From positions 2,252,526-2,316,525 of the forward strand of contig PJRA01000412.1 in assembly GCA_016987375.1 (NCBI GenBank): 64,000 nucleotides of DNA, in the 5' to 3' direction. The position numbers were made by a program, and so were the translations under genes. The first letter of the stretch is position 1, and every line of letters starts with the position of its first letter. Source of the stretch: Brachionus koreanus (lineage: Eukaryota > Rotifera > Eurotatoria > Ploima > Brachionidae). The notes beneath the pieces were generated by a model. It saw only the letters and a program-made list of their open reading frames with translations. It was not told the DNA's origin and did not search any database. Below are positions 8,031-41,724 of this stretch, piece after piece.

Positions 8031-9594
8031 TTAATCGATAAAGACCTTTTCATTCGAAGTTGAAACTTCTTCTTGGTCCGATTCATTTGCGATAGGTATT
8101 AAAAAATTCTTTATTTTTAAACCTGGTCTTTGTATTTTTGATAAATTGTGCCTTCCATAACTCATAAAATATATGACAGAAGCAACGTGACTACAACATC
8201 CGAGGGTTCTTTTTCCGGTCTTACAACTACAGATCCATGTTATGTCATCAACGTTTGTCGAATTCGGTTTGTATCTGACGAATATTTTATATTTCAGTTA
8301 TTTTGAGTGTCTGGACTGCATCTTACAAAATATAATCTTTGCATCTTCATCATTAGTCAAATTATTGCATACCAGTATTTCATAATCTTCATTTAAGTCG
8401 AAGTGTTCAGACAAATATCCGTAAGCTTGTTCTAGTTGGTAATAGCCGAAAGTGATTTTTTTTCTAATCATCTCAACGTCGAATTCTTACTTTTCATAGC
8501 CTCAGCGATTTCTTAAGCATCTCCTTTGTCGGATATTCTTTTACAGAAAAAAACGTTAATAACCGCTGATGCTATTCGATAATCATCAGTAATATGTGAA
8601 AGCATCGTGTTTTGTATTTCTTTTAAAGCTTTAAACTGTTGCTTAAAAATTCTGTTAATCACTTCAACCACATAACGGCATTTAGTTACCAATCGAGTTT
8701 CATTGTCTTTGTCTTTATTCCATATCATTTGCTAATTACCATCGTTAATGACAAAAAAAAAATAAATTAAATATTGATTTATTTAATATAAAATATTCCT
8801 GCAAGTTGGAATTTTGCAATTCAAACCGTAAATTGACGATAATATAGCTATACACTCTTTGAATCCGCGATCAAAAATTACTAGATCGCCTTTCTTTAGG
8901 AGTTCTCTTAAATTTAAATCTTTTTCCATTACACTCTCCATTATTGAAGCATTATTATCAAAGACATCATAATTCCCATAGACATCATTATTTTGCCATT
9001 TGTTGCTGTAATTACGAAAGGTTTTAACCAAAGGTCGCTTTTTGTGACCGCTATACAATTTTCGTTGAATCATATTGTTTGAACTTTTCTTGCAATAGCA
9101 ATATGTACCATCAGCAATTATAGCAAATTGTTTATCATTTAAATCGAATAACGATTTTACCATTTCAGTGTTTTAACCGAGACATTCATCTCTTGAAAAA
9201 CGTTTTGCTCCAAGATGAGGAACGAAATCTTTCGCATTACTAACTTGGGCGCAAATGTTACTAACAGTTTGTCTAAATTCAAAATCAAATATATTGGCGA
9301 TCATCAAAATTTAAAAAATCACCGATTTTTTTCGAAGTAAAAGCTGTGTGAAGCATACCCGCGGCTTATATTTAACACTGTTTTCATCGTATTTTGAATC
9401 ATATTATAATTTGTATATTGATCTTCTTGATCGGTCAGGGCTATTGTTTCAAAATTTTACTCGTCTTGATCAATAGATTCATTTGTATAATCTTCTTTAT
9501 TTGCTGATGTTGTAGGTTGTACATTTTCGTAAATATCAAAATTGTTCTCATCTTGAATTACCGACGATGAGTTGTTTTCTTCTGAATTCGACAT
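8031..9594 (-). pseudogene. Decayed DDE transposase (DDE_Tnp_4/ISL2EU-type) with SWIM-like Cys/His tail
   Basis: Start codon at 9594 (acidic, Ser/Asn-rich N-terminus) and stop at 8031. The core at 8783-9163 keeps the features of the DDE_Tnp_4 superfamily: IADGTYCYCKKSSN, then YSGHKKRPLVK, then VIFDRGFKE, which should supply catalytic Asp residues. Next (8513-8728) comes RYVVEVINRIFKQQFKALK, a usual segment before the third acidic residue. The C-terminus reads WICSCKTGKRTLGCCSHVASV, a C-x-C...C-x-H zinc-binding pattern like SWIM domains. At least one in-frame stop (about 9175), a stop near 8510 and several frame shifts near 9310, 8740 and 8280-8510 show it is inactive. No clear terminal inverted repeats were found. 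Confidence 0.85.
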
Positions 9595-10326: not shown

Positions 10327-10853
10327 TTAATTTAAAAATGTAAAGTTTTTTTAAGATTAATATGCTTTTTTCCAAAAAATCAGATTTCTAAATTATTTTA
10401 AAAGATGTTGATTTTTGACCATAATTAAAAAGTCTTATTGAAAAGAATTCAAAATTTTTAAATTTTTTAGAATTTCTTTTAACGATTTTTTCCAATAAAA
10501 TCAAATCCTTAAAGCTATTAATCAAAATTTTGCTTATAATAAATTGTTTATTCGGTTCATTTATATAAAAATCTAATCTTTTATAACAATAGAATAAACA
10601 AAATGTTCTGTGAAGACGAATTAAAATTTAATTTAATTCTTTATGCGTTGGCTTCTTTTATAGTGATAGGAACATTTTTACAAAATACCGATTAATAAAT
10701 TATATATTTTTTATTATCTTCAAACATAATTGATTTTAAATCTTTGTATATTTGTATGATTTTTGAATCATTTAAATGAAAAATATAATTTTTTAAATTT
10801 TATTCTAAAAAGTATTTCCAAAAAAAAAATCATAAAAAATTGTGTTGATTAAG
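10327..10853. other. AT-rich interval downstream of the microRNA cluster
   Basis: No recognisable coding or structural signal. It may hold the 3' part of the primary microRNA transcript. Confidence 0.35.
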
Positions 10854-10950
10854 AAATAGTTGCATTATACCTGAAAATCTAACTTGTGAATAGGATAATT
10901 TGATAGGTCATCACAAGTTAGGGTCTCAGGGATCGTGCAACTGTTATTTT
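10854..10950 (-). ncRNA. mir-125: microRNA precursor miR-125 (lin-4 family)
   Basis: The mature 5' arm lies at 10911-10932 on the minus strand. All 22 bases match the canonical bilaterian miR-125 (seed CCCUGAG, then ACCCUAACUUGUGA). The opposing arm at about 10862-10889 pairs with it through CTAACTTGTGA and its complement, with a small internal mismatch, and a lower stem pairs AGTTGCA with TGCAACT. The terminal loop is about 20 bases. miR-125 represses heterochronic and developmental mRNAs in animals and is generally co-transcribed with let-7. It is last in a three-hairpin cluster on this strand, the conserved order. Identity is close to certain; the exact precursor ends are estimated. Confidence 0.96.
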
Positions 10951-10968
10951 GTAATGGCTTGAATCAAT

Positions 10969-11044
10969 TTGGTTTCGACGCTGAAACAAAAATTTTATTT
11001 AAGCTAGAAAGTTGCATGGTTAGCTTGAGTTTTGTTCCGAACTA
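10969..11044 (-). ncRNA. Candidate extra hairpin inside the let-7 cluster
   Basis: Between the miR-125 and let-7 precursors, AAGCTA pairs with TAGCTT around a 14-base loop. After an asymmetric internal loop, GGAACAAAA pairs with TTTTGTTTC. The fold is weaker than those of the three known precursors, and no arm matches a microRNA family I know. It may be a lineage-specific microRNA or only structured spacer. Confidence 0.35.
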
Positions 11045-11087
11045 GGAATGACTTTAATTCGATCATCCGAAGACTAAACGAAATCAT

Positions 11088-11164
11088 ATCGAAAAGTCTT
11101 TGGTTGCCTAGTCCGAAAACAAGTTTGTTTCCAATTCTAAACCATACAACCAACTACCTCAAAC
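11088..11164 (-). ncRNA. let-7: microRNA precursor let-7
   Basis: The mature 5' arm occupies 11140-11161 on the minus strand and starts with UGAGGUAG, the invariant let-7 seed region. It matches canonical let-7 at 20 of 22 positions; position 10 is U instead of A and position 19 is G instead of A. The 3' arm (about 11091-11117) pairs through GGCAACC opposite GGUUG, AGACUUUU opposite the seed, and CGGACUA opposite UAGUUUGG-like bases, leaving a loop of about 20 bases. let-7 drives developmental timing and differentiation by repressing targets such as lin-41 and lin-28. Position in the cluster (after miR-100, before miR-125, same strand) supports the call. Confidence 0.95.
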
Positions 11165-11217
11165 AAAACTCTTGATTCGATTGATATCATAGGTCTTGAT
11201 GGATTCATACGTCATTT

Positions 11218-11322
11218 AAAAATTTACCCGTATATTACAAACTCAGGTCTTTAATTTTGTATTTAAATTTTTTAATAGTCATTTTAGTATCCCACTCAAG
11301 TTCGGAATTACGGGTGAACTTT
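11218..11322 (-). ncRNA. mir-100: microRNA precursor miR-100 (miR-10 family)
   Basis: The mature 5' arm lies at 11295-11316 on the minus strand. The seed ACCCGUA (positions 2-8) and the 3' block CCGAACUUG are those of miR-100. Positions 1, 9, 10 and 21 differ from the canonical form. The opposing arm near 11222-11248 contains UACGGGU, which fully pairs with ACCCGUA, then a bulge, then a UGAGUUU segment opposite GAACUUGAG. The loop is about 45 bases, longer than usual. It is first in the cluster on this strand, 133 bases before mature let-7. Given the seed, the 3' match, the hairpin and the gene order, confidence is high. Confidence 0.93.
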
Positions 11323-13852
11323 TAAAACGATTTTTTAAAACTCATCGCATTGTTAACCATTTGCCATATTGGATTTTTCTCAACTTGCCATTAAAAATTC
11401 TCGGTTTTTATACTTACTTGGTTAGGTGAAAATAATGAAAAATTTTTCTCATTCCAAATTAAAAATAAAAGCGTGGTTTGTTCAAAGAGAAGAAAGCTTT
11501 GGAAAAATGATAATTTACTTATAAAATTCAAGTCGAATAAAATAGAAAAACATTAAAAAAAAAAAGCAAAATCATTCTTTTTTATTTTAGTGAATTTGGA
11601 AACAGAGTAGAATGAGTTTAAACCTAGAGTATAGCTATTATAATATTGAAATAATAAAAAAAAAAAACGCTTGCAAGCCCAAATTAGAAAGCATGTTCTC
11701 TAGCTTTGTTTCTTCTTAATCACTTTGACATTCACCTTCGTCTAAAATGAAGTAATAAGAGCTGTAACGTTGCCTAGACTCCCTCTAAAATGTTAGATAA
11801 TTTTATTCCTAAGATAAGATTTGAGCACGCTAGGCTTTAAACCTTTTGACTGTAAAAAAGTAACCTTACACTAACGCGTCTTTGTTCATGTGATGGCTTT
11901 AAAAATGGAGAAATGAGCTTAGATAATTTTATACGAAGAATTTTTTATTTGAAGTGTTTGTGTGAGCAAACATTGAATTCCAATCTAACATTGAATTCGT
12001 TTCTTGAGAATATGAAAACTATAAGATGCCATCGTTTTATATAGTGAAGAATTCAGAAATTTATTATTATTATTTTAAAAGAATTTATTAAATTTTATAA
12101 GAAAAATTTAAAATAAAAACTAAAACGTCTGACGCTTAAGTTAAATTAGAAAATAAAAATGGCTAGCGTTATAACAAATGAAAAAGCTAAAATTTTCTAA
12201 ATGATATTAGGGCTTTTTAAAGATAAAGCCTTTTTTTTTCTAAAAACATTTAGTACAGGCATCGCATTTAGAAATGTTTTTTTCTAAAAAATAAATTCAT
12301 TTTTATTTTCTGCTCTCATGTTTTTACCAAACTAACAACATTATAAAAATTATGTAAAATTCAACACGATAAAATTAGAAATTTTCCTATTAGATAGATA
12401 AAATGTTGCAAACAACATTAGCATAATATTTAAATCAACTATTTCTAGAATGTAACCTTGGCATAATTTGGAGTATTTTATTGCTGTGGAGCATAAGTGT
12501 TCTCCCCATCCAATATTGCTTCATAGTGCCTTAACTGTCTAGACACAAAGCAACACTCAGCCTTGAATAATTTTTTTTAAAAATCAATCTCAACATTAGC
12601 AACACTAATGCTCATAATTATTTATAATTTAAAATTAGATATTTATTGATTATTGTATAATGAATAAAAATCAATAATGTTCATCCTAAAAAACTGAGCA
12701 TTTTTTTTTCCAAACTATGGAAACCTATTCCTGATGTTTGACAAAGATGATTTAGTAAATTTAAAACACGCTGCAAGCTATACAATTAATGAAAATATAA
12801 ATGGCAAAAAGGCAATAATTTAAGCGAGCAAATTTCTAAATGTTAAAATTAAAACTTATCATGAAGCTAATAAAATTTCACATTGTTTTAAAGCAGGAGA
12901 AATTTATTTTTATCTAATACCAAAACAACTAAGCATTTATTCAAAAAAATGTATTTTAAGCTTAAAACAAATTTTGCTCAGCTTTTTTCTTTTATTTTTT
13001 TTAAATTAAAAAATGCATTTGGTTTTGATAAAAAACAATAAAGATTAAGCAATATAAGGCTTTAGAAAAAAAATGTTTTAGTTTTACTGTGTTTGATAAT
13101 GTTAAAAACAAAGTTATCTATGCCAAAGTTTATTAAAATAAACTAAAATTCTATAATGGATATGATTCGAGTTTGATAAAATAAAATTTATGGTAAGAAT
13201 GTATCTGAATTCACATGAGTTTTCATGTGAAAATTTATTCTAATGAAAATTTGGGATATTAAAGATTAGAATTTTTTAAACTAGTCTTATTTTTTGTGGA
13301 CTGATTTTTCTAATCAAAAATTTACATATCAAAAATCAAGCTCTAGTAATTTTTAGAAATTTTCTTAGTTATGTATACATAATATTCTTTTACTCGGCTT
13401 GGTTTTTTTTCTAGTTTTTTTTTTTTAACAATCAAGACAACAAAAAACAAATAATTTTTCTTAAATTTAAATCATCGAATTTTAATTATCGAAGACCATC
13501 ATTCTTTACACCCATTTTCATCATGATTTTTATTACACATGAAATTTTTCAACCATTTTTAATGTTCATATAGTTTAATTAAAGTGTATAAAAATTTATT
13601 CCACAAATAAGAGAAAAAGCAAGTATTTTTTCTTTATTTTTTTTACTTTTTAAACAATAAATAGTCTATCTGATGTCCAATATTAAAAAGTATATGATAT
13701 ATGCAGATAAAACACTATTAAATCGTTCTATTAAATTAAGCATTCATTTCTGGCTTTGTTTAAGATTATTTAAAATTTTTCTTAGGTAGAATTTTTGGAC
13801 TGAGGACTAGTTTCTTGATTATTGTTTTTCTCTTTATTGAAGTAATTAGATT
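11323..13852. other. AT-rich interval upstream of the microRNA cluster
   Basis: No protein gene is supported. The primary microRNA transcript probably starts somewhere here on the minus strand. A short hairpin at 12511-12560 is reported among the findings. The rest is homopolymer-rich sequence. Confidence 0.4.
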
Positions 13853-14707
13853 TTGAGTATTAAACGTTTTATTGAGAAGAAGAATTATTGTTTTGAGAAA
13901 TAAATCTAATTGTACAATGTTTATTATTAAAGAAAAGTGAAATAGTTTTAAAGGCTAGTTAATATAGATGCTGGCTCGCGAGGACAAATTATTGGCACTA
14001 TTGCAAAATTTTCTGAGGAACTTCTGTAAAAAGCTATTATGCTAGGTAGCCTTGTTTGCTTTTCTCGTTTGGTAGGGAAAGCGAGCATCTGGACGGAGGT
14101 TGCGCGATAGAGAGGACGTGATTGTTTGGCTTGGCTCGACAAGAATTCTTTTGAGTATTCGTTCGCAGGCTTGATCAACGAAGTCGGGGATTGGAAGAAG
14201 TTTGTAAGAGCCTGCAGTTTGCTAGTCGATACCAATTATATGCCAGAGGCGGGAGTTAAGCACGATCATCTCATATTTACTAGCTGCATAGGTTGATGTA
14301 AGCATTACGGCGCTATACGTTAGGTGACTGATACAATAAGCTCTGTGGGCGTTGACGAGCATGGGCGTTGTCCAGCCATTGAGTTTAAGTTGCTTTAGTA
14401 GGAACTTTACAGGATTGATTACTGAAAGTACGCGTTTCCATTGTAGATCGAGGTCGAGTCTGAGAGCTCAAAGCCGAGATATTTATATGAATTGACAATT
14501 TCGAGAGTTTGGTTGAGCAGATAGATAGTGGTAACACTCAGGTCGGTTTAAATGCGGGGGGTTGATGCAAATCACTTTGCACTTATTCACGTTCAAGCGC
14601 ATTTTGTTATCATTACACCAACGTTGTAAGGCGTCTACTATTTTCTGGGGAAGTTCGCCAAATGTGTTACCTGCAATGTAAGCTAGAATATCGTCTTCAT
14701 ACTTGAG
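13853..14707 (-). mobile_element. 5'-truncated non-LTR retrotransposon, copy 1 of family A
   Basis: The minus strand starts inside a reverse-transcriptase palm: YEDDILAYIAG carries the x-x-D-D catalytic motif, followed by LPQKIVDALQRWCNDNKMRL and NVNKCKVICINP, the usual thumb-side continuation. The remainder runs to a C-terminal segment (13948-14235) with LTNFFQSPTSLIKPANEYSK and ICPREPASI, followed by about 95 bp of 3' flank. At least one frame shift and stops around 14240-14560 break the ORF. The 5' end stops abruptly near 14707. The final 290 bp recur at 5013-5308. Confidence 0.85.
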
Positions 14708-15071: not shown

Positions 15072-16001
15072 TCATAAATTGTTAATTTTGGTTTGAAAGC
15101 GATTCGGTTCATCATAAATGGAAAAATTTTTTGTCGACTGAAAAGTTGAGAGAACATTTACGACAGGCTCGGAATCATCATCAATAGAATCGGTAGACAA
15201 GACAGGCGAATACGGATTTTCCAAGCAACAACTTTCGTCTAACTTTATAATCGACGGATCGGTTTCTTGCTTTAAGATGGTTTCAGTCTTTTTAAATTCA
15301 CTCTTGAAGCTTTGATTTTTCCTAGTCGAAAAAGTCTGAAACCTAGTCTCGTATTCACCGGTATTGAATAATTTTTCTCCATATGTATACAAATAGGGTA
15401 CTTCATAAATCAATCTATCACTTATTGCATCACTATTCTGCTCCGGCTTACTATTATTATTACTAAAATTCTCGAATTGATACTCTTCTGATATTGAATT
15501 TGAATCATCTTGATTAGACCACTTAAAAATTTTAAAGCTGTTTCGATATCCCATTAGATCGATTACGTCAAAGCTAAAATTTTTTTTCTTCTTAAATTCT
15601 ACTTTTAGCAAATTTTTTGCTTTTCTTGACCTAAAATATTTTAAAATTATGAGTCCAGCTATGCAAATTATGGTCAAAAGCACTGAAATAAACAAAATTG
15701 AGTAAAGAATTTTTTCATCTCTAAAAACATGGTTCATTTTTGACCTAAAAAAGCTAAAAATTTTGCCATATTGAAATGTATTTTTAGTAGTTATTGGATC
15801 TGGATCGATTTGATCTTTTTGATCTATTTTTTGCGAGACAAACAATTCATTTAGTTTTTGGATTAGATTCGAATTTGAGTCTAATGTTAAATCGACATAG
15901 AAATTATCATCTTGACCAGAACATTTGGCTATCAAAAATGGCACTATGGTCAAAATAAATTTTCCAATGAGCATGTTAGTATTTACATTAATATTAAACA
16001 C
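15072..16001 (-). CDS. Predicted single-pass membrane protein of unknown function (309 aa)
   Basis: One uninterrupted frame. Residues about 10-29 (MLIGKFILTIVPFLIAKCSG) look like a cleaved signal peptide, so translation may begin at the second Met. A short extracellular segment of about 75 residues follows, then one strong membrane span (ILYSILFISVLLTIICIAGL) near residues 100-125. A basic stop-transfer stretch (KYFRSRKAK) comes next, then a cytoplasmic tail of about 180 residues rich in Ser, Asp, Glu and Tyr (EVPYLYTYGEKLF). The topology suggests a small type I receptor or adhesion protein. The extracellular part has no recognisable domain and little Cys. No homologous family is recognised. 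No introns. Confidence 0.7.
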   Translation of the reverse strand: MFNINVNTNMLIGKFILTIVPFLIAKCSGQDDNFYVDLTLDSNSNLIQKLNELFVSQKIDQKDQIDPDPITTKNTFQYGKIFSFFRSKMNHVFRDEKILYSILFISVLLTIICIAGLIILKYFRSRKAKNLLKVEFKKKKNFSFDVIDLMGYRNSFKIFKWSNQDDSNSISEEYQFENFSNNNSKPEQNSDAISDRLIYEVPYLYTYGEKLFNTGEYETRFQTFSTRKNQSFKSEFKKTETILKQETDPSIIKLDESCCLENPYSPVLSTDSIDDDSEPVVNVLSTFQSTKNFSIYDEPNRFQTKINNL

Positions 16002-24760: not shown

Positions 24761-25320
24761 GTATCCTTTTAAATGATTTTTTTCATGGTATCGACATATT
24801 TGAAGATATAGATTAAAATCACATACAATATAACTAATTTAATTTATTTATCTTTTCATTTACATATTATATTATCATCATTATATTTTTTTCATTCCAA
24901 CTCTATTAAAAACTTTTTCAAAGGCAAAATTTATAACAACATACTAACAACTCATTAATTTTTGATTGAAGGAGCTCACGCTCGAAAGTCTTTAAATAAA
25001 CTTTTTAATAAATAATAACAATAATAATTCTAGTCTTATAAAATGGATATTGAATCTTTAAAAAGTCAGGTCTAGTTCAAAGCCATTTAAAACATGTAAA
25101 ACTGAACGAACGTATAAGAACTTTATTAAGGAATTATAAAAAAGAAAATTTTAATGATATTTTTAAAAAAATTTATCATTGATAATTAAGTATTGAATAT
25201 TTTATTTTTTTATTATAATGTGATGACTTTAATGAACAAATTATTTTCAATTTCTGGCTTTTTTGACACTATTTATTTTTTTTACTTATTTAATTTGATT
25301 TAATTATTTTGGAAAAAGAA
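24761..25320. other. AT-rich spacer between two retrotransposon fragments
   Basis: No clear coding frame; it may contain more diverged retrotransposon sequence. Confidence 0.3.
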
Positions 25321-26285
25321 ATGATATTAATAACTATAGGGGTATTAGTGTTCTGCCACCAATATCAAAAATCTTTGAACGGTTACTAGCATCTCAAATA
25401 TCAAAGTATTTCGAAACCAACAAGATTTTTTTCTCAGGACAACATGGTTTCAGGAAAAATTTTTCTTGTGAAACTGCTCTACATGAGCTAATTTCTGATT
25501 TAAACGAAATTCGAGATAAAAAATCAATAGCTATTTTGCTTTTTAAAAAAGCGTTTGATACTGTAGATACTGATCTATTACTTTCAAAGTTGTTTCATTA
25601 TGGTTTTGATAATACCAGTTTGAACCTAATAAGGAATTATTTTTTTAATCGAAGTCAAATTGTAAAAATAGGAAAATATCGATCAGGAGTTGAGAAGATC
25701 AAGTTAGGTGTACCGCAAGGTTCCGTTCTCGGCCCATTATTCTTCCTTATTTTTATAAATGACTTGCCAATGTATTTAACTAATCTTAAATCGAAATTAT
25801 TTGCTGATGATACAACAATTTATTCTGATCACTTTAATCTTGAGGATTTAACAACAGAATTTTTTCGAAATATTCGCCGTCTCTTTGAATGGTGTAACTT
25901 TAATCGTATAGATATCAATTGGTCAAAGACTTTTTGTATGTTTATTACAAACAAACAAGTTAAAATACCTGAATATCTTATACTTGAAGGTATTAAAATT
26001 GAAGTGATCACGAAATATAAACTACTTGGAGTAACTATTGATTCAAAACTAGAATTTGGCCAACATGTAAGTGAATTTCGGAAGCTTATTAACTATAGAC
26101 TCTTTTCAATTAAAAAACTTTTTTATTTGTCTTTTTCAGTAAAAGTTCAATTTTTAAAACTTTTATCCTTCCTTATTTTGATTATTGTCTTTCTTTAAGT
26201 ATTTACTTTCACAAGTCTAGTATTCAAAGACTAGCTAATTGTTATTATCTTTGTTTATTTAAGCTGTTTAATTTTAAATTTTCAT
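25321..26285 (+). mobile_element. Reverse-transcriptase fragment of a CR1/jockey-like element, running into a gap
   Basis: A single frame runs from about 25321 (NNYRGISVLPPISKIFERLL, SGQHGFRKNFSCETALHEL) through KKAFDTVDTDLLLSKL, GVPQGSVLGPLFFLIFINDL and LFADDTTIY (the catalytic x-A-D-D motif) to YKLLGVTIDSKLEFGQHV. The motif A position that normally reads LDFxKAFD is LLFKKAFD, so one catalytic aspartate is absent. A frame shift near 26170 is needed to continue into KSSIQRLANCYYLCLFKLF, which then enters the N gap. The copy is therefore probably inactive. Confidence 0.88.
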
Positions 26286-26691
26286 NNNNNNNNNNNNNNN
26301 NNNNNNNNNNNNNNNNNNNNNNNNNNNNNNNNNNNNNNNNNNNNNNNNNNNNNNNNNNNNNNNNNNNNNNNNNNNNNNNNNNNNNNNNNNNNNNNNNNNN
26401 NNNNNNNNNNNNNNNNNNNNNNNNNNNNNNNNNNNNNNNNNNNNNNNNNNNNNNNNNNNNNNNNNNNNNNNNNNNNNNNNNNNNNNNNNNNNNNNNNNNN
26501 NNNNNNNNNNNNNNNNNNNNNNNNNNNNNNNNNNNNNNNNNNNNNNNNNNNNNNNNNNNNNNNNNNNNNNNNNNNNNNNNNNNNNNNNNNNNNNNNNNNN
26601 NNNNNNNNNNNNNNNNNNNNNNNNNNNNNNNNNNNNNNNNNNNNNNNNNNNNNNNNNNNNNNNNNNNNNNNNNNNNNNNNNNNNNNNNNNN
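26286..26691. other. Assembly gap (406 N)
   Basis: A run of N inside the retrotransposon copy. The repeat probably caused the break. The sequence directly after it (to about 26800) is consistent with the end of the same element but too short to prove it. Confidence 0.99.
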
Positions 26692-26799
26692 TTCCATGAT
26701 AAAATTATTATGGAGCCCTTAACTTAAAAAGTTAACTGGTAAACATATACCAGATAGACGATTGTCTTTTTTAACTTTTGTTCACATTTAATAAATAAA

Positions 26800-33461: not shown

Positions 33462-35258
33462 CTAAGAATCAAAACTTACAGACTTGTCAAAATTACTCAT
33501 TTCATTTTTTTCTTGAATATCAATTTTCTTTTTTTTCCAAAAGCCAAGCAAGTTGAACAATATTAAGGAATCATCAATGTAATGCTTTGGTCCACCAGTG
33601 ATCAAACTTACTAACAAACCAATTATAATAGTTATAAAAGTGCCCAAAGGAGTGTACAACATGTAAGAAATTGAGTAAATTTTGGAAAAACCAGTCAATT
33701 GAGAAATTTGATAATTGGCTGTTGAATTTGTAAAACTTGCTGTAGTGTTTAAAAAGGGACAAAATTCAGTGCTAACATCTAATTTTGGATAATATGGCTT
33801 TACTATAAATGCTCCAAAACTAATCCAAATACCAAAAGCAAATCCAAAAAAGCTGCCAACCAAGGCTCCCCATGAATTAGTATTTTTAAATAAACAACCC
33901 AAAACAAAGAGGCCCAGAATGGGCGAAATCATTGCTCCGTTTAAACTAGTTGAAATCTGTTGAAGATTAGTTCCGAATGCAGCAATGATAAAGGAGAATA
34001 GAGTACTTAAAATTCCGCAAACAACAACAATTATTTTGGTAGTAGTCAAACTCTTAGATTCATCTAAATTTTTGAAATACTTAAAAGATTTAAAATAATC
34101 TTCCCAAATAATGGAAGATAAACTATTTAATGAAGAAGAAACTGAACTAAATGATCCACAGAAAACTGCGGCCAAAAAAAAACCTGCTGATCCTGGAATA
34201 TTTTTTAGATTATTAGCCACAAAAAAACCGACCAATTGATTCGGATTTGTAATTTGTTTCGATGCTAATGGATCACAAGTTGCAAAATTTGCATATAAAA
34301 CTAGTCCAACAAAGCAGCACAAAGATAACATGATAAAAACCCCAGGTACATTAAGTAACAAAGCTTTTTGAGCCAATTTTTTAGTTTTTGTTGCTTGAAA
34401 TCGTTGAAGTGTCTGCTGATCAGTAGAAAACGAATAAGAAAAATAGACCAGAAATCCAAAAAAAATAGACCAGAAGGTCTGACGCTCAAAAGGATTTGGA
34501 TCAAAATCTAGCACGTTAAACCTTCCTCCTTTAGAATTTATCTCAAATAAATTTGCAAAACCTCCAACATCATAAATACCTTTTATTAAGATAACTAATA
34601 AAGAAACAATCATTATGTTAACTTGAAAAAAATCCGTCCATATTACGCCTTTAATTCCACCAATTGTTGTGTAAAATGTTGCTATAGATCCAACAATTAT
34701 TATCGAGTATTTTTCGCTCAAGTTTGAAAAAACATTCAAAGATACTGCTGGTCCAAATATAAATATAGCTGTGGAGATAAAATTTTTTACAATGTAACAA
34801 AGAGTGCCGACATATTTTACCAATGGTGAGCTAAATCTAATATGGAGGTATTGAAATATGGTAAATATTTGAAGACGTGCAAATAGAGGTCCGGTTGTGT
34901 AAGCGCCAATTAAGGGAGTAAGCATTCCAGAAAATGCTGTAATCCAATATTCAAGACCAAATTGATAAACTTCAGCTGGAATTCCTAGCAATGCAGTAGT
35001 TGAAAAAAAAGTAGCCAAAAGAGAAAATGCAACTGGTATTGGATTCATTGAAGAATTTGCTGTTAAATAATGAGAAACACTGTTCGTGCTTTCATTCTTT
35101 GATATTTTATTCTTGGAAAATAAGCCATTTATCTTTTCTTTGAATCCATGATATGAACCGATTATTATTGTGATTAAAAATATAAATATCAGCACTAGAT
35201 AATCCAATACTTCTAGTTCATTTATCATTCTCAAAAATACTTTAAAAATAAATAACAA
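33462..35258 (-). CDS. SLC5-family sodium-coupled solute symporter (SLC5A8/SLC5A12-like)
   Basis: A single open frame of 598 residues, the normal size of the family, with about 13 hydrophobic spans. These transporters use the sodium gradient to import monocarboxylates, vitamins or iodide across the plasma membrane. Conserved blocks: SMNPIPVAFSLLATFFSTTA, EVYQFGLEYW, TTIGGIKGVIWTDFFQ, FSTDQQTLQRFQATKTKKLA and FFLAAVFCGSFSSVSSSLNS. The core most resembles the SMCT/SMVT branch rather than glucose or choline carriers; the substrate cannot be told from sequence. N-glycosylation-type motifs (NTTASFTNSTA) sit in a late extracellular loop. A second Met at residue 11 (MINELEVLDYL) could be the real start. 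It has no introns, unlike most neighbours and unlike vertebrate SLC5A8. Confidence 0.9.
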   Translation of the reverse strand: MLFIFKVFLRMINELEVLDYLVLIFIFLITIIIGSYHGFKEKINGLFSKNKISKNESTNSVSHYLTANSSMNPIPVAFSLLATFFSTTALLGIPAEVYQFGLEYWITAFSGMLTPLIGAYTTGPLFARLQIFTIFQYLHIRFSSPLVKYVGTLCYIVKNFISTAIFIFGPAVSLNVFSNLSEKYSIIIVGSIATFYTTIGGIKGVIWTDFFQVNIMIVSLLVILIKGIYDVGGFANLFEINSKGGRFNVLDFDPNPFERQTFWSIFFGFLVYFSYSFSTDQQTLQRFQATKTKKLAQKALLLNVPGVFIMLSLCCFVGLVLYANFATCDPLASKQITNPNQLVGFFVANNLKNIPGSAGFFLAAVFCGSFSSVSSSLNSLSSIIWEDYFKSFKYFKNLDESKSLTTTKIIVVVCGILSTLFSFIIAAFGTNLQQISTSLNGAMISPILGLFVLGCLFKNTNSWGALVGSFFGFAFGIWISFGAFIVKPYYPKLDVSTEFCPFLNTTASFTNSTANYQISQLTGFSKIYSISYMLYTPLGTFITIIIGLLVSLITGGPKHYIDDSLILFNLLGFWKKKKIDIQEKNEMSNFDKSVSFDS

Positions 35259-36110: not shown

Positions 36111-36980
36111 CTACTTGGCCAATTTTTTTAATTGTTCTAAAAAGATAAAAGTAAAAATTGTATGAGGTCCAAGACGAACAAAAGCTGGTGTAAATCCTTT
36201 GAAAAAACCACTTGGCCCAACCTTTAAAATATCTTTTGCACATTCTAAAATACCAGAATACTCTCCTGGTTTAGCGTTCATTAGTCTAGTTTTAAGCACA
36301 TCCAAAGGCATTGTAATAATCGTTGCAATCACTCCAGCGCTCAAACTCGCAGTGAAATGAGTCAGCAAATTATCGGCAAAATAGGTAGATTTGATTAGGC
36401 GAAATTTTATTTCATCATAAAAAGCTAGCTGACCAACAGTTACCAACATTCCTCTAGACGAGGCCATCGATGCACCAGCAAATAAGCGACTGAAGCCTTC
36501 GGTTCGCGTTATACGAAGCAATGCTTCAAAGCAATGCTTATAGTTTCGTCTCTGATCGATTGGAAGCTTGGAATCGTTTTGCATTCGAACATTAGTCAGA
36601 TCTGCTGGAGCTCCAACTATGCCACCAATTGCTCCACTCATACCAGCGATGAGTATTTTTTGATAAAATGGCATGTCTTTTGGTTTTGAACCTGAATTTG
36701 ATCTATTATTTACAATATCTTTGACAATTTCATAGCAAGCAAAACGCGTGGTCGAATAAGTAGCTTGTCTAAGAACAGCGGCCGAAATTCCATTATAAAG
36801 AGCAAAAAAACCATTGTTTTTGACAATATTGACTGTCATTCCAAAGAAGCCAAAGCGAGCATGCTGTTGAGTCTGCAATTGGACTTTTATTGTGTCTAAT
36901 GGATGTGTTATCAAAACAGCACCGATCGATGCAATTCCACCTAAATACCAAGGATCTTTTTTTTGGTTTGATTTAGTCAT
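36111..36980 (-). CDS. SLC25A10: Mitochondrial dicarboxylate carrier, intronless copy
   Basis: A single frame of 289 residues, the usual size for an SLC25 carrier. The protein exchanges malate or succinate for phosphate or sulfur anions across the inner mitochondrial membrane. Three tandem repeats each carry a P-x-[DE]-x-x-[KR]-x-[RQ]-like signature: PLDTIKVQLQ (residue 27), PADLTNVRMQ (second third) and PLDVLKTRLM (last third). The segments NGISAAVLRQATYSTTRFACY, GGIVGAPADLTNVRMQND and GMLVTVGQLAFYDE are typical of dicarboxylate carriers. All three signatures are intact. It has no intron, whereas the paralogue 3.7 kb upstream in the same orientation has three, so it may be a retroposed copy or a copy that lost introns. 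Confidence 0.93.
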   Translation of the reverse strand: MTKSNQKKDPWYLGGIASIGAVLITHPLDTIKVQLQTQQHARFGFFGMTVNIVKNNGFFALYNGISAAVLRQATYSTTRFACYEIVKDIVNNRSNSGSKPKDMPFYQKILIAGMSGAIGGIVGAPADLTNVRMQNDSKLPIDQRRNYKHCFEALLRITRTEGFSRLFAGASMASSRGMLVTVGQLAFYDEIKFRLIKSTYFADNLLTHFTASLSAGVIATIITMPLDVLKTRLMNAKPGEYSGILECAKDILKVGPSGFFKGFTPAFVRLGPHTIFTFIFLEQLKKLAK

Positions 36981-38780
36981 TTTTTTGTAAATAAACTTTT
37001 CTAAATCTTATTTTTTGCATTTAATAGTAAAGTTTTAGTTCTCATATTTAAAAAAATTTATTATTATAATTATTTGAAAAATATTTTCAACATTATCAAC
37101 TAGTTTTATAAAATGGACTTAATTTATTTAAATAATTGTTTTTTTAAAAACTACGTGAAAATTTCAGCTGAATCGTTTTGTCTAAAACTTTCTAAAAAAA
37201 TTTTTTAAGTGTTGGCAAAAATTTCAATTTTTTTTTGTTAAGAATTTATAATCTTGTTAAGGGTGGGAAAATTAGCGTGCATTATCAACGTTTAAATTAT
37301 GATTTTGTTTCTTTAACGTTGAGATATATTATTTTTACAATAATAATTATAAATTCGATTCCAAAAAGTTTAAAGTCTGTATAGAAGCATTTTTGCTACA
37401 TTGATATTCCTAGATTTAAAATTGCTCTTTTAGTCATCATGATAGTGCATTTATTCTAAAAAAAATATTTATTTTCTCTGAATTAAAAAAAATTTTAAAT
37501 AATAGCAACTGCCATAATTTTTTTTCGTTTTTAACAAATAATAAAAAAAATTGGTGTTTTAAAATCAATGATTAAAGATCGATCTGGTTCTTAGTTTATG
37601 AAAATTATTTTTTTTACTTTCATAAATGACACACTTTTGTTTTAATCTCATATTTAAAAAATTTGATATGAATTTATCAATGTTTTTTTGTTTTCAAAAT
37701 AACAGATAGTTTTATTTNNNNNTTTTTTGAAAGTAAAATTTGGCTTTTTTTAAAATTAAATAGTTAATTTAATAATTTTAAAATAATTAACTTTTCTTTC
37801 TTAAATTTAAAAAAAAAATGTAAATGATCACTTTGGTTAATTTGGAAAAAATTCAAAAATAAAAAATAAAGTTAATAAAAAGATTTTCTATGATTTATTT
37901 AAAACAACTTGTTTTACATCAAAAAAAAATTTAATAATTTTAAATTAAATTTTGTTGAAATTTTAAAATTCTTTATTCTTAAAAATTTTAAAATAACAAA
38001 AATTTTTTTACACAATTTCAATGTTATTTTCTTTTTTCACTTATAATTAAATAAGAAATAGTGTTGCGTACCGTCAGTGACTGTCACCAGACCGCAATAA
38101 CTTGGTGTTGGTCATCTTGATGGCGGCGTGGAAAAAAATTTTTTAATTTTTTTCTTATATTTAATTCTTTTATATATCGAATTTTTATATTTGAAAATTT
38201 TTTAAATTTTATTTTTGTACACGGCCTATCAAAACATATTCAGTCCTCTTGCTATCTCTTACTCAATTCAAAATTTCGAATTAGATGTTCATGATGTACA
38301 TATTCTTTTTAATTCGATTGCAAAAAACCCAAAAGGAATTATTTTAAAAAATTCCGTTTTGAGATTCAATGCTTTTTAATTTATTTAAACATGTATTTAA
38401 AAGAAATATGTGGATACAATTTATTCTCATAATATTTCTTCCAAATTTCTGATCAATACTTCTAATTTTATTTTAATAAAGCTTTTATTTATTTTGAATA
38501 CGTTTTTTTATCATTATTTATCAATTATTAAATAATTAATGGGACCGTGTGCAAACTAATGTCTGCTTTTTTACTTTTTACTAATTATCAAAGAGCAAAG
38601 TTTGACATTTACAGCAAAAACATCACGTATAAATTGTGTGACATGTAACATGAAACAAAAAATTTATTCTTCTGTTATTTCCTCAAGGAAATGAGATATA
38701 TTTTGTTCGAATTTTTATTTTCTCTTCCCTAGATACATAGCTTTATATTTGTTCATGTTTAGATTTTTCGATCAAGTATC
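36981..38780. other. AT-rich intergenic stretch with a 5-N gap
   Basis: No supported gene. Five N at 37718-37722 mark a small sequence gap in a T-rich run. A stretch near 38740-38790 (GATTTTTCGATCAAGTATCT region) has a close match near 52345-52390, so part of this area is repetitive. Confidence 0.4.
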
Positions 38781-40645: not shown

Positions 40646-41724
40646 TTATTCGTTTAAATAATTTGAGATTATTTTTAATCTTTCATAAAAAACAAATGAT
40701 ATGATAGTAAACGGTCCCAAACGAACATATCTTGGCCAAAATCCTTTGAATAAACCCAGTTTGTCATATCTTAGTACTTCCCGGGTTGCATGCAAAATGC
40801 CATTGAGCTCACCTGGTTTTGCATTCATTAATAAAGTTTTTATCACATCAGCTGGCATTGTAATAAATGTTGCAACGAATCCAGCAGACATACTAGCTAC
40901 AAAATGAGTCGTAATATTATCGTTAAAATAGGGGGTTTGTATGAGCTTTGTTTTGAATTCATCATAGAAAGCTAATTGGCCAACAGTTACCAAAACTCCT
41001 CTCAAAGCTGACATGTGAAAACCGGTATACAAGGTGGTGAATCCTTCAGTTTTAGCTATTCTGTATAATGCTTCAAAACAATGTTTATAATTTCTTCTTT
41101 TTTCGAACGGAAGTTTTGAATCGTTTTGCATACGAACATTTATTAAATCAGCCGGACTTCCTTTTTTTCTTAAGCTTAATTAAAACTATTGAAAATAGGT
41201 TTTTTTCTAATTATACCCACAATGCTGCCAAAACCTCCACCAAGTCCGGCAATTATCATTTTTTGATAAAATGGAAGCTGATTTTTATGAATATCATTTC
41301 CTTTTTTTGCTTCCCATTCAACTAAAACCTCTTTTGCATATTCATAAAAAGCAAATCTAGTTGTTGAATAAGTTCCTTGCCTTAGTAAAGCGGCAGACAA
41401 TCCATTATAAAGCGATAAAACCCCACTGGTTCTTATTATTTTAAAAGTCATGCCTAGATAAAAATAAAATTTTAAATTTAAAAGCTTTTAAAAGTCTTGA
41501 TAGTACCGAAAAATCCGTATTGAACTTTTTTCTGAGTTTGCAATTGAACCTTTACGGTATCCAATGGATGTGTTAAACATGTTGCTCCCATACTTGCTTG
41601 AAAAACATTTCTTTAAATTATTTATGTTGATAAATTATCAAAATATAAATATAAGCATAACAGTTCAATTACCTAGGCCACCCAAATAGCCTGGCTCGGG
41701 TTTTCTGGCTTTATTAGCCTGCAT
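40646..41724 (-). CDS. SLC25A10: Mitochondrial dicarboxylate carrier, intron-containing copy
   Basis: Four exons on the minus strand join in phase: 41724-41673, 41596-41507, 41453-41217, 41160-40646, giving 297 residues. Function as for the paralogue at 36.1 kb: anion exchange across the inner mitochondrial membrane. First signature HPLDTVKVQLQTQ and second SPADLINVRMQND are intact. The third reads PADVIKTLLMNA, with Leu where the family normally has Arg or Gln (the paralogue has PLDVLKTRLMNA). That residue takes part in the conserved charged and polar network, so transport may be altered. LSAALLRQGTYSTTRFAFYE and GVLVTVGQLAFYDEFK are conserved. Starts MQANKARKPEPGYLGGL. It is divergent from the Asterix gene, 606 bp away. 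Confidence 0.93.

What the first reader, a model, noticed from the sequence alone, without database searches (positions are those of the whole stretch)
10854..11322. Intact let-7 complex: miR-100, let-7 and miR-125 within 0.47 kb
All three microRNAs of the ancestral bilaterian let-7 cluster occur on the minus strand, in the conserved order, each in a foldable hairpin with the mature sequence on the 5' arm. Mature arms sit at 11295-11316, 11140-11161 and 10911-10932. The cluster lies in a gene-free interval, so it probably forms one primary transcript. Such compact linkage is informative for rotifer or related lineages, whose microRNA complement is often thought reduced.
Basis: partly seen in the sequence, partly recalled or inferred. 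Interest (0 to 1): 0.9.

Follow-up and report, generated by a model that had tools for sequence, protein, structure and literature searches.

The report
Rotifer let-7 microRNA cluster, intact
This stretch of a Brachionus-like rotifer genome carries the well-known animal trio of developmental microRNA genes (miR-100, let-7, miR-125) side by side in the usual order; it is a real but expected find, with one odd detail: the predicted let-7 hairpin is more than twice as long as usual.

Summary
On the minus strand miR-100 (11316-11295), let-7 (11161-11140) and miR-125 (10932-10911) lie in the conserved order within 0.47 kb. Each pattern matches once in the window and in 0 of 100 shuffles, and each lies on the 5' arm of a predicted hairpin. 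The genome holds one convincing copy of each. A gene in the window is 85% identical to Brachionus plicatilis, so the source is a Brachionus-like rotifer.

This is the ancestral bilaterian let-7 complex, a new member of a known kind. Rotifer microRNAs, those of B. plicatilis included, are catalogued in MirGeneDB, and the cluster is described as present in almost all bilaterians.

Its star arm lies at about 11021-10998, beyond a 118-nt structured apical part, which implies a precursor of about 164 nt against a reported monogonont mean of 69. Rfam's let-7 model scores far below threshold and chooses another 3' arm. Whether relatives share the long loop, or whether it regulates processing, could not be tested. 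No small-RNA reads were available.

The parts
11295..11316 (-). miR-100 mature, 5' arm (CACCCGTAATTCCGAACTTGAG)
   Evidence: 17 of 22 bases paired in the minimum-energy fold
11210..11329 (-). miR-100 hairpin including lower stem; inferred precursor 11316-11223, about 94 nt
   Evidence: z -2.6; mature-to-3'-arm pairing probability 0.74 in a 1001-nt context
11140..11161 (-). let-7 mature, 5' arm (TGAGGTAGTTGGTTGTATGGTT)
   Evidence: 19 of 22 bases paired
10998..11021 (-). let-7 star arm, inferred with a 2-nt 3' overhang
   Evidence: pairing probability with the mature arm 0.83 against 0.0 for the nearer arm 11080-11125
11022..11139 (-). 118-nt structured apical part of the let-7 hairpin
   Evidence: single match of the 203-base hairpin in the genome
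10987..11174 (-). whole let-7 hairpin with 13-pair lower stem; inferred precursor 11161-10998, about 164 nt
   Evidence: z -7.7, 0 of 200 shuffles
10911..10932 (-). miR-125 mature, 5' arm (TCCCTGAGACCCTAACTTGTGA)
   Evidence: 19 of 22 bases paired
10858..10942 (-). miR-125 hairpin including lower stem; inferred precursor 10932-10866, about 67 nt
   Evidence: z -9.1, 0 of 200 shuffles
10981..11417 (-). speculative 437-nt intron of the primary transcript that would hold miR-100 and let-7 (donor GTAAGTAT at 11417-11410, acceptor TTTTTGTTTCAG at 10992-10981)
   Evidence: donor 8-mer occurs twice in 64 kb on both strands; but the acceptor fails a stricter pyrimidine test (at least 10 of 12) in the same call. 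Inference only

Best explanation
This is the orthologue of the ancestral bilaterian let-7 complex (miR-100 / let-7 / miR-125) in a Brachionus-like monogonont rotifer. It is probably transcribed on the minus strand as one non-coding primary transcript, cut by Drosha into three hairpins and by Dicer into 5'-arm microRNAs that silence target mRNAs by their seeds (pathway from established knowledge of these families). The let-7 hairpin carries a 118-nt structured apical part, so its precursor (about 164 nt) is unusually long while its Drosha-proximal stem and mature arm look normal. Shown here: sequences, order, strand, hairpins by prediction, single copy. Inferred: transcription, processing, star arms, function.
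For: Matches in the window with 0 of 100 shuffles; hairpins; one convincing copy of each in the 83.26 Mb genome; conserved order as described for the mir-100/let-7/mir-125 cluster (passages; the 5'-3' order itself is recalled); Brachionus-like source; gene-poor interval. For the long let-7 form: pairing probability 0.83 with the distal arm and 0.0 with the nearer one in a 1001-nt context; a 13-pair uninterrupted lower stem directly below the mature 5' end.
Against: No expression data were available. No model of Rfam reaches its gathering score anywhere in the window; at relaxed thresholds mir-10 scores 17.5 and 20.9 bits on the miR-100 and miR-125 hairpins (cut-off 47.5) and let-7 19.5 (cut-off 53.5), and the miR-125 hairpin scores slightly better on the opposite strand (22.2). 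The miR-100 hairpin is only modestly better than shuffles (2 of 200 as good). No let-7 7mer-m8 site was found within 1.5 kb downstream of the TRIM-NHL frames looked at, though several of those stretches read N.
Confidence: 0.95

Rival explanations
1. let-7 is processed from a conventional short hairpin whose 3' arm is at about 11110-11088, and the long fold is a by-product of the inverted sequence beyond it.
For: Rfam's let-7 model aligns to 11167-11088; that stretch folds alone at -24.4 to -27.3 kcal/mol.
Against: In a 1001-nt context the pairing probability with that arm is 0.0 against 0.83 with the distal arm; the long form folds at -55.2 kcal/mol and has an uninterrupted 13-pair lower stem. 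Co-transcriptional folding, which could favour the short form, was not modelled.
Confidence: 0.08
2. The cluster is a decayed or silent remnant: sequences persist but one or more members are no longer processed.
For: miR-100 has four changes from the recalled canonical 22-mer, outside its seed, and its hairpin is the weakest.
Against: miR-125 is unchanged over 22 bases and pairing on the star arms is kept in all three.
Confidence: 0.03
3. The three matches are chance resemblances.
For: None beyond low Rfam scores.
Against: 0 of 100 shuffles give any of the three matches, and they lie in order within 0.47 kb.
Confidence: 0.001

Closest known systems
Bilaterian mir-100/let-7/mir-125 cluster (let-7 complex of Drosophila and others)
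   Same: Same three families, same strand, same order, 5'-arm mature sequences, close linkage (the order and arms in other animals are recalled).
   Different: let-7 precursor about 164 nt with a 118-nt structured apical part. The cluster spans 0.47 kb; mir-100 and let-7 alone are reported within 1 kb in Strigamia.
Brachionus plicatilis microRNAs in MirGeneDB (bpl)
   Same: Same or closely related genus; 54 microRNAs and 35 conserved families annotated there (text of the papers).
   Different: The database entry itself was not readable here, so neither the linkage nor the let-7 precursor length in B. plicatilis could be compared; the monogonont mean is 69 nt.
Long microRNA hairpins of the seisonid Seison nebaliae and parasitic flatworms
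   Same: Precursor length in the reported seisonid range of about 75-175 nt.
   Different: In Seison long hairpins are general (mean 117 nt); here, within the cluster, they are about 94, 164 and 67 nt.

Membership tests
LET-7 family | Mature sequence with seed GAGGUAG on the 5' arm | tested here: met
   seed identical, 2 of 22 mismatches to the recalled canonical sequence
LET-7 family | Hairpin with lower stem and mature/star duplex | tested here: met
   19 of 22 mature bases paired, 13-pair lower stem, z -7.7
LET-7 family | Covariance model of the Rfam let-7 family at gathering score | tested here: not met
   19.5 bits against 53.5. The model expects a short loop; this lowers recognition by Rfam and is not a defining biochemical feature
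MIR-10 family (miR-100 and miR-125) | Mature seeds ACCCGUA and CCCUGAG on 5' arms of hairpins | tested here: met
MIR-10 family (miR-100 and miR-125) | Rfam mir-10 model at gathering score | tested here: not met
   17.5 and 20.9 bits against 47.5
let-7 complex | Three genes on one strand, order miR-100, let-7, miR-125, close linkage | tested here: met
   0.47 kb
let-7 complex | One primary transcript; processed 22-nt reads with fixed 5' ends | not testable with these tools
   no RNA data held
let-7 under Lin28 control | Lin28 gene in the genome and GGAG motif in the precursor loop | tested here: inconclusive
   No GGAG in the 118-nt apical part. 19 cold-shock-domain matches; 14 of 19 translated, none followed by a CCHC knuckle in the same frame, 5 not translated. 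Lin28 second-knuckle model PF21890: no match, but no control genome rang either

The most novel reading that the evidence does not exclude
In this rotifer lineage pre-let-7 has acquired a long structured apical domain that serves as the site of regulation of let-7 processing, perhaps in place of Lin28, and its lower stem overlaps a splice acceptor so that splicing and Drosha cutting of let-7 compete while miR-125 lies in the next exon.
Probability: 0.07. Interest if true: 0.6.

Novelty: new member of a known kind. Interest (0 to 1): 0.3.

Why it matters
It adds a clear instance of the intact complex in a Brachionus-like rotifer, whereas nematodes and flatworms are reported to have the cluster broken and miR-100 lost. 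The long let-7 precursor shows how models that expect a short loop can miss a conserved microRNA gene, which bears on claims of microRNA loss made from genome scans alone. Otherwise it is ordinary.

Tried and rejected
Extra copies: let-7 with up to 3 mismatches gave 2 matches in the genome (control, pattern read backwards: 5); the second has a changed seed, and only about 13 of its bases pair, in one of three folds. miR-100 with up to 2 mismatches gave 4 matches (control 3); the three besides the cluster show no microRNA-like hairpin by eye. miR-125 with up to 3 mismatches gave 1 (control 1). miR-10 proper with up to 3 mismatches gave 2 (control 1), neither a hairpin by eye. In one search the loci of minus-strand matches were folded on the wrong strand; one search repeated four of them on the right one.

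Repeat origin of the let-7 loop: the 203-base hairpin and the 2001-base surroundings match only themselves; a diverged repeat would be missed.

Target test: the frame on L058 (705 aa, B-box, filamin, six NHL stretches) has the domain make-up recalled for LIN-41. Its readable 597 nt downstream hold one TACCTCA; the best duplex energy is matched or bettered by 26 of 50 shuffled let-7 sequences, so it is no evidence. Beyond that the sequence reads N.

Same-genome length comparison with miR-1: no match with up to 2 mismatches, so no comparator. Lin28: inconclusive; a search of solved structures for a Lin28 query led nowhere. Related loci: no exact match of let-7 or miR-125 in viral contigs or of let-7 in genome contigs. 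Cox1 was not found.

Papers: searches found no paper on the linkage in rotifers; only listings were seen except PMC12256650 (abstract, section 7, passages), PMC8728216, PMC4244043 and PMC3763532 (passages).

Full report
What is there. The minus strand of 10858-11329 holds three hairpins, in transcript order miR-100, let-7, miR-125. The miR-125 22-mer is unchanged from the recalled canonical sequence; let-7 differs at 2 of 22 bases; miR-100 differs at 2 of the 19 bases searched, seed intact. Each pattern with up to 3 mismatches matches once in 64 kb and in 0 of 100 shuffles. Folding supports all three: z -7.7 for let-7 and -9.1 for miR-125, 0 of 200 shuffles as good in each; miR-100 is weaker, z -2.6 with 2 of 200. 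[quoted passage not shown]

Whose genome. The window is G000:C5:2252526-2316525 of an 83,257,189-base assembly in 92 contigs. The transporter at 33465-35228 (-) is 85% identical to a Brachionus plicatilis protein and 79% to one of B. calyciflorus; the frame upstream of the cluster, 15075-15974 (-), is 63% identical to a B. plicatilis hypothetical protein. It is therefore Brachionus-like, but neither of those two by these identities. The species was not determined.

Copy number. let-7 is found exactly once, miR-125 once with up to 3 mismatches, and miR-100 once without mismatch plus three times with 2. The extra weak matches are as many as or fewer than the backward controls and show no convincing hairpin by eye. 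The surroundings are single-copy.

Anatomy. In the minimum-energy folds the mature arms pair at 17, 19 and 19 of 22 bases. The let-7 lower stem is 13 uninterrupted pairs directly below the mature 5' end; miR-100 has 13 with a 2-nt bulge on the 3' side; miR-125 has 8 pairs broken by a 2-by-2 internal loop. Taking a 2-nt 3' overhang, the precursors are about 94, 164 and 67 nt. CNNC (a motif recalled to help Drosha) begins about 17-18 nt past the inferred cut in let-7 and miR-125 and at 21 in miR-100; in so short a stretch this is weak evidence.

The odd let-7. A nearer 3' arm, which Rfam's model picks, has pairing probability 0.0 in a 1001-nt context, the distal arm 0.83. The 118 nt between the arms fold into a further stem with branches. 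Herlyn et al. 2025 (PMC12256650, section 7 read) give mean hairpin lengths of 69 nt in monogononts and 63 in bdelloids, and about 75-175 nt in Seison. This let-7 therefore falls in the seisonid range. That mean may hide such outliers in Brachionus, and I could not read the MirGeneDB entries or the supplement. The apical part has no GGAG. A Lin28 gene was not found, but the test is inconclusive: 14 of 19 cold-shock matches translated, no positive control for the knuckle model.

Surroundings. Among stop-to-stop frames of at least 45 aa, the longest lying within 10388-13954 is 79 aa. Downstream lie weak transposase-like frames (8.0-9.2 kb, below Pfam cut-offs), upstream a reverse-transcriptase fragment at 14.5-14.7 kb, also below its cut-off, then the Brachionus-conserved frame at 15-16 kb. 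A donor-like GTAAGTAT at 11417 (twice in 64 kb, both strands) and TTTTTGTTTCAG ending at 10981 would frame a 437-nt intron with miR-100 and let-7 inside. Rfam's weak U1 match at 11410-11450 on the other strand (12.9 bits, cut-off 69.5) reflects that donor's complementarity. The acceptor fails a stricter pyrimidine test. I hold this as a guess.

How it works. From established knowledge of these families: one primary transcript, Drosha and Dicer cutting, 5'-arm guides, repression of targets by seed pairing, with let-7 and miR-125 acting in developmental timing. None of this was shown here. The one target check gave nothing.

What is known. [quoted passage not shown] passages of PMC3763532 say it is highly conserved, but unlinked, with mir-100 lost, in nematodes and flatworms. 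MirGeneDB 2.1 includes Brachionus plicatilis (PMC8728216, passages). The rotifer paper gives 35 conserved families there; in what I read it names LET-7 and MIR-10 for acanthocephalans, not for Brachionus in particular. No paper found or 47 describes the linkage in rotifers; the database coordinates probably show it. I therefore file this as a new member of a known kind, interest 0.3.

Noticed in passing
window 8034-9172 (-): Frames with weak DDE_Tnp_4 and SWIM matches, below Pfam cut-offs, looking like a broken DNA transposon just downstream of the cluster.
   Followed up: no
window 14486-14707 (-) and 25299-26195 (+): Reverse-transcriptase matches: a fragment below cut-off and a clear one of 299 aa.
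   Followed up: no
window about 26278-26700: A run of N inside the window.
   Followed up: no
window 36114-37007 and 40649-41179 (-): Two mitochondrial carrier frames, the second shorter; perhaps a local duplicate.
   Followed up: no
G000 C8 and C44 (L008-L015): Arrays of four Y-box-type cold-shock matches on each of two contigs with the same scores or nearly so, perhaps haplotype copies in the assembly.
   Followed up: partly
whole genome G000: No match to the recalled miR-1 pattern with up to 2 mismatches, although miR-1 is reported as strongly conserved in syndermatans; divergence, a gap or a withheld stretch could explain it.
   Followed up: no
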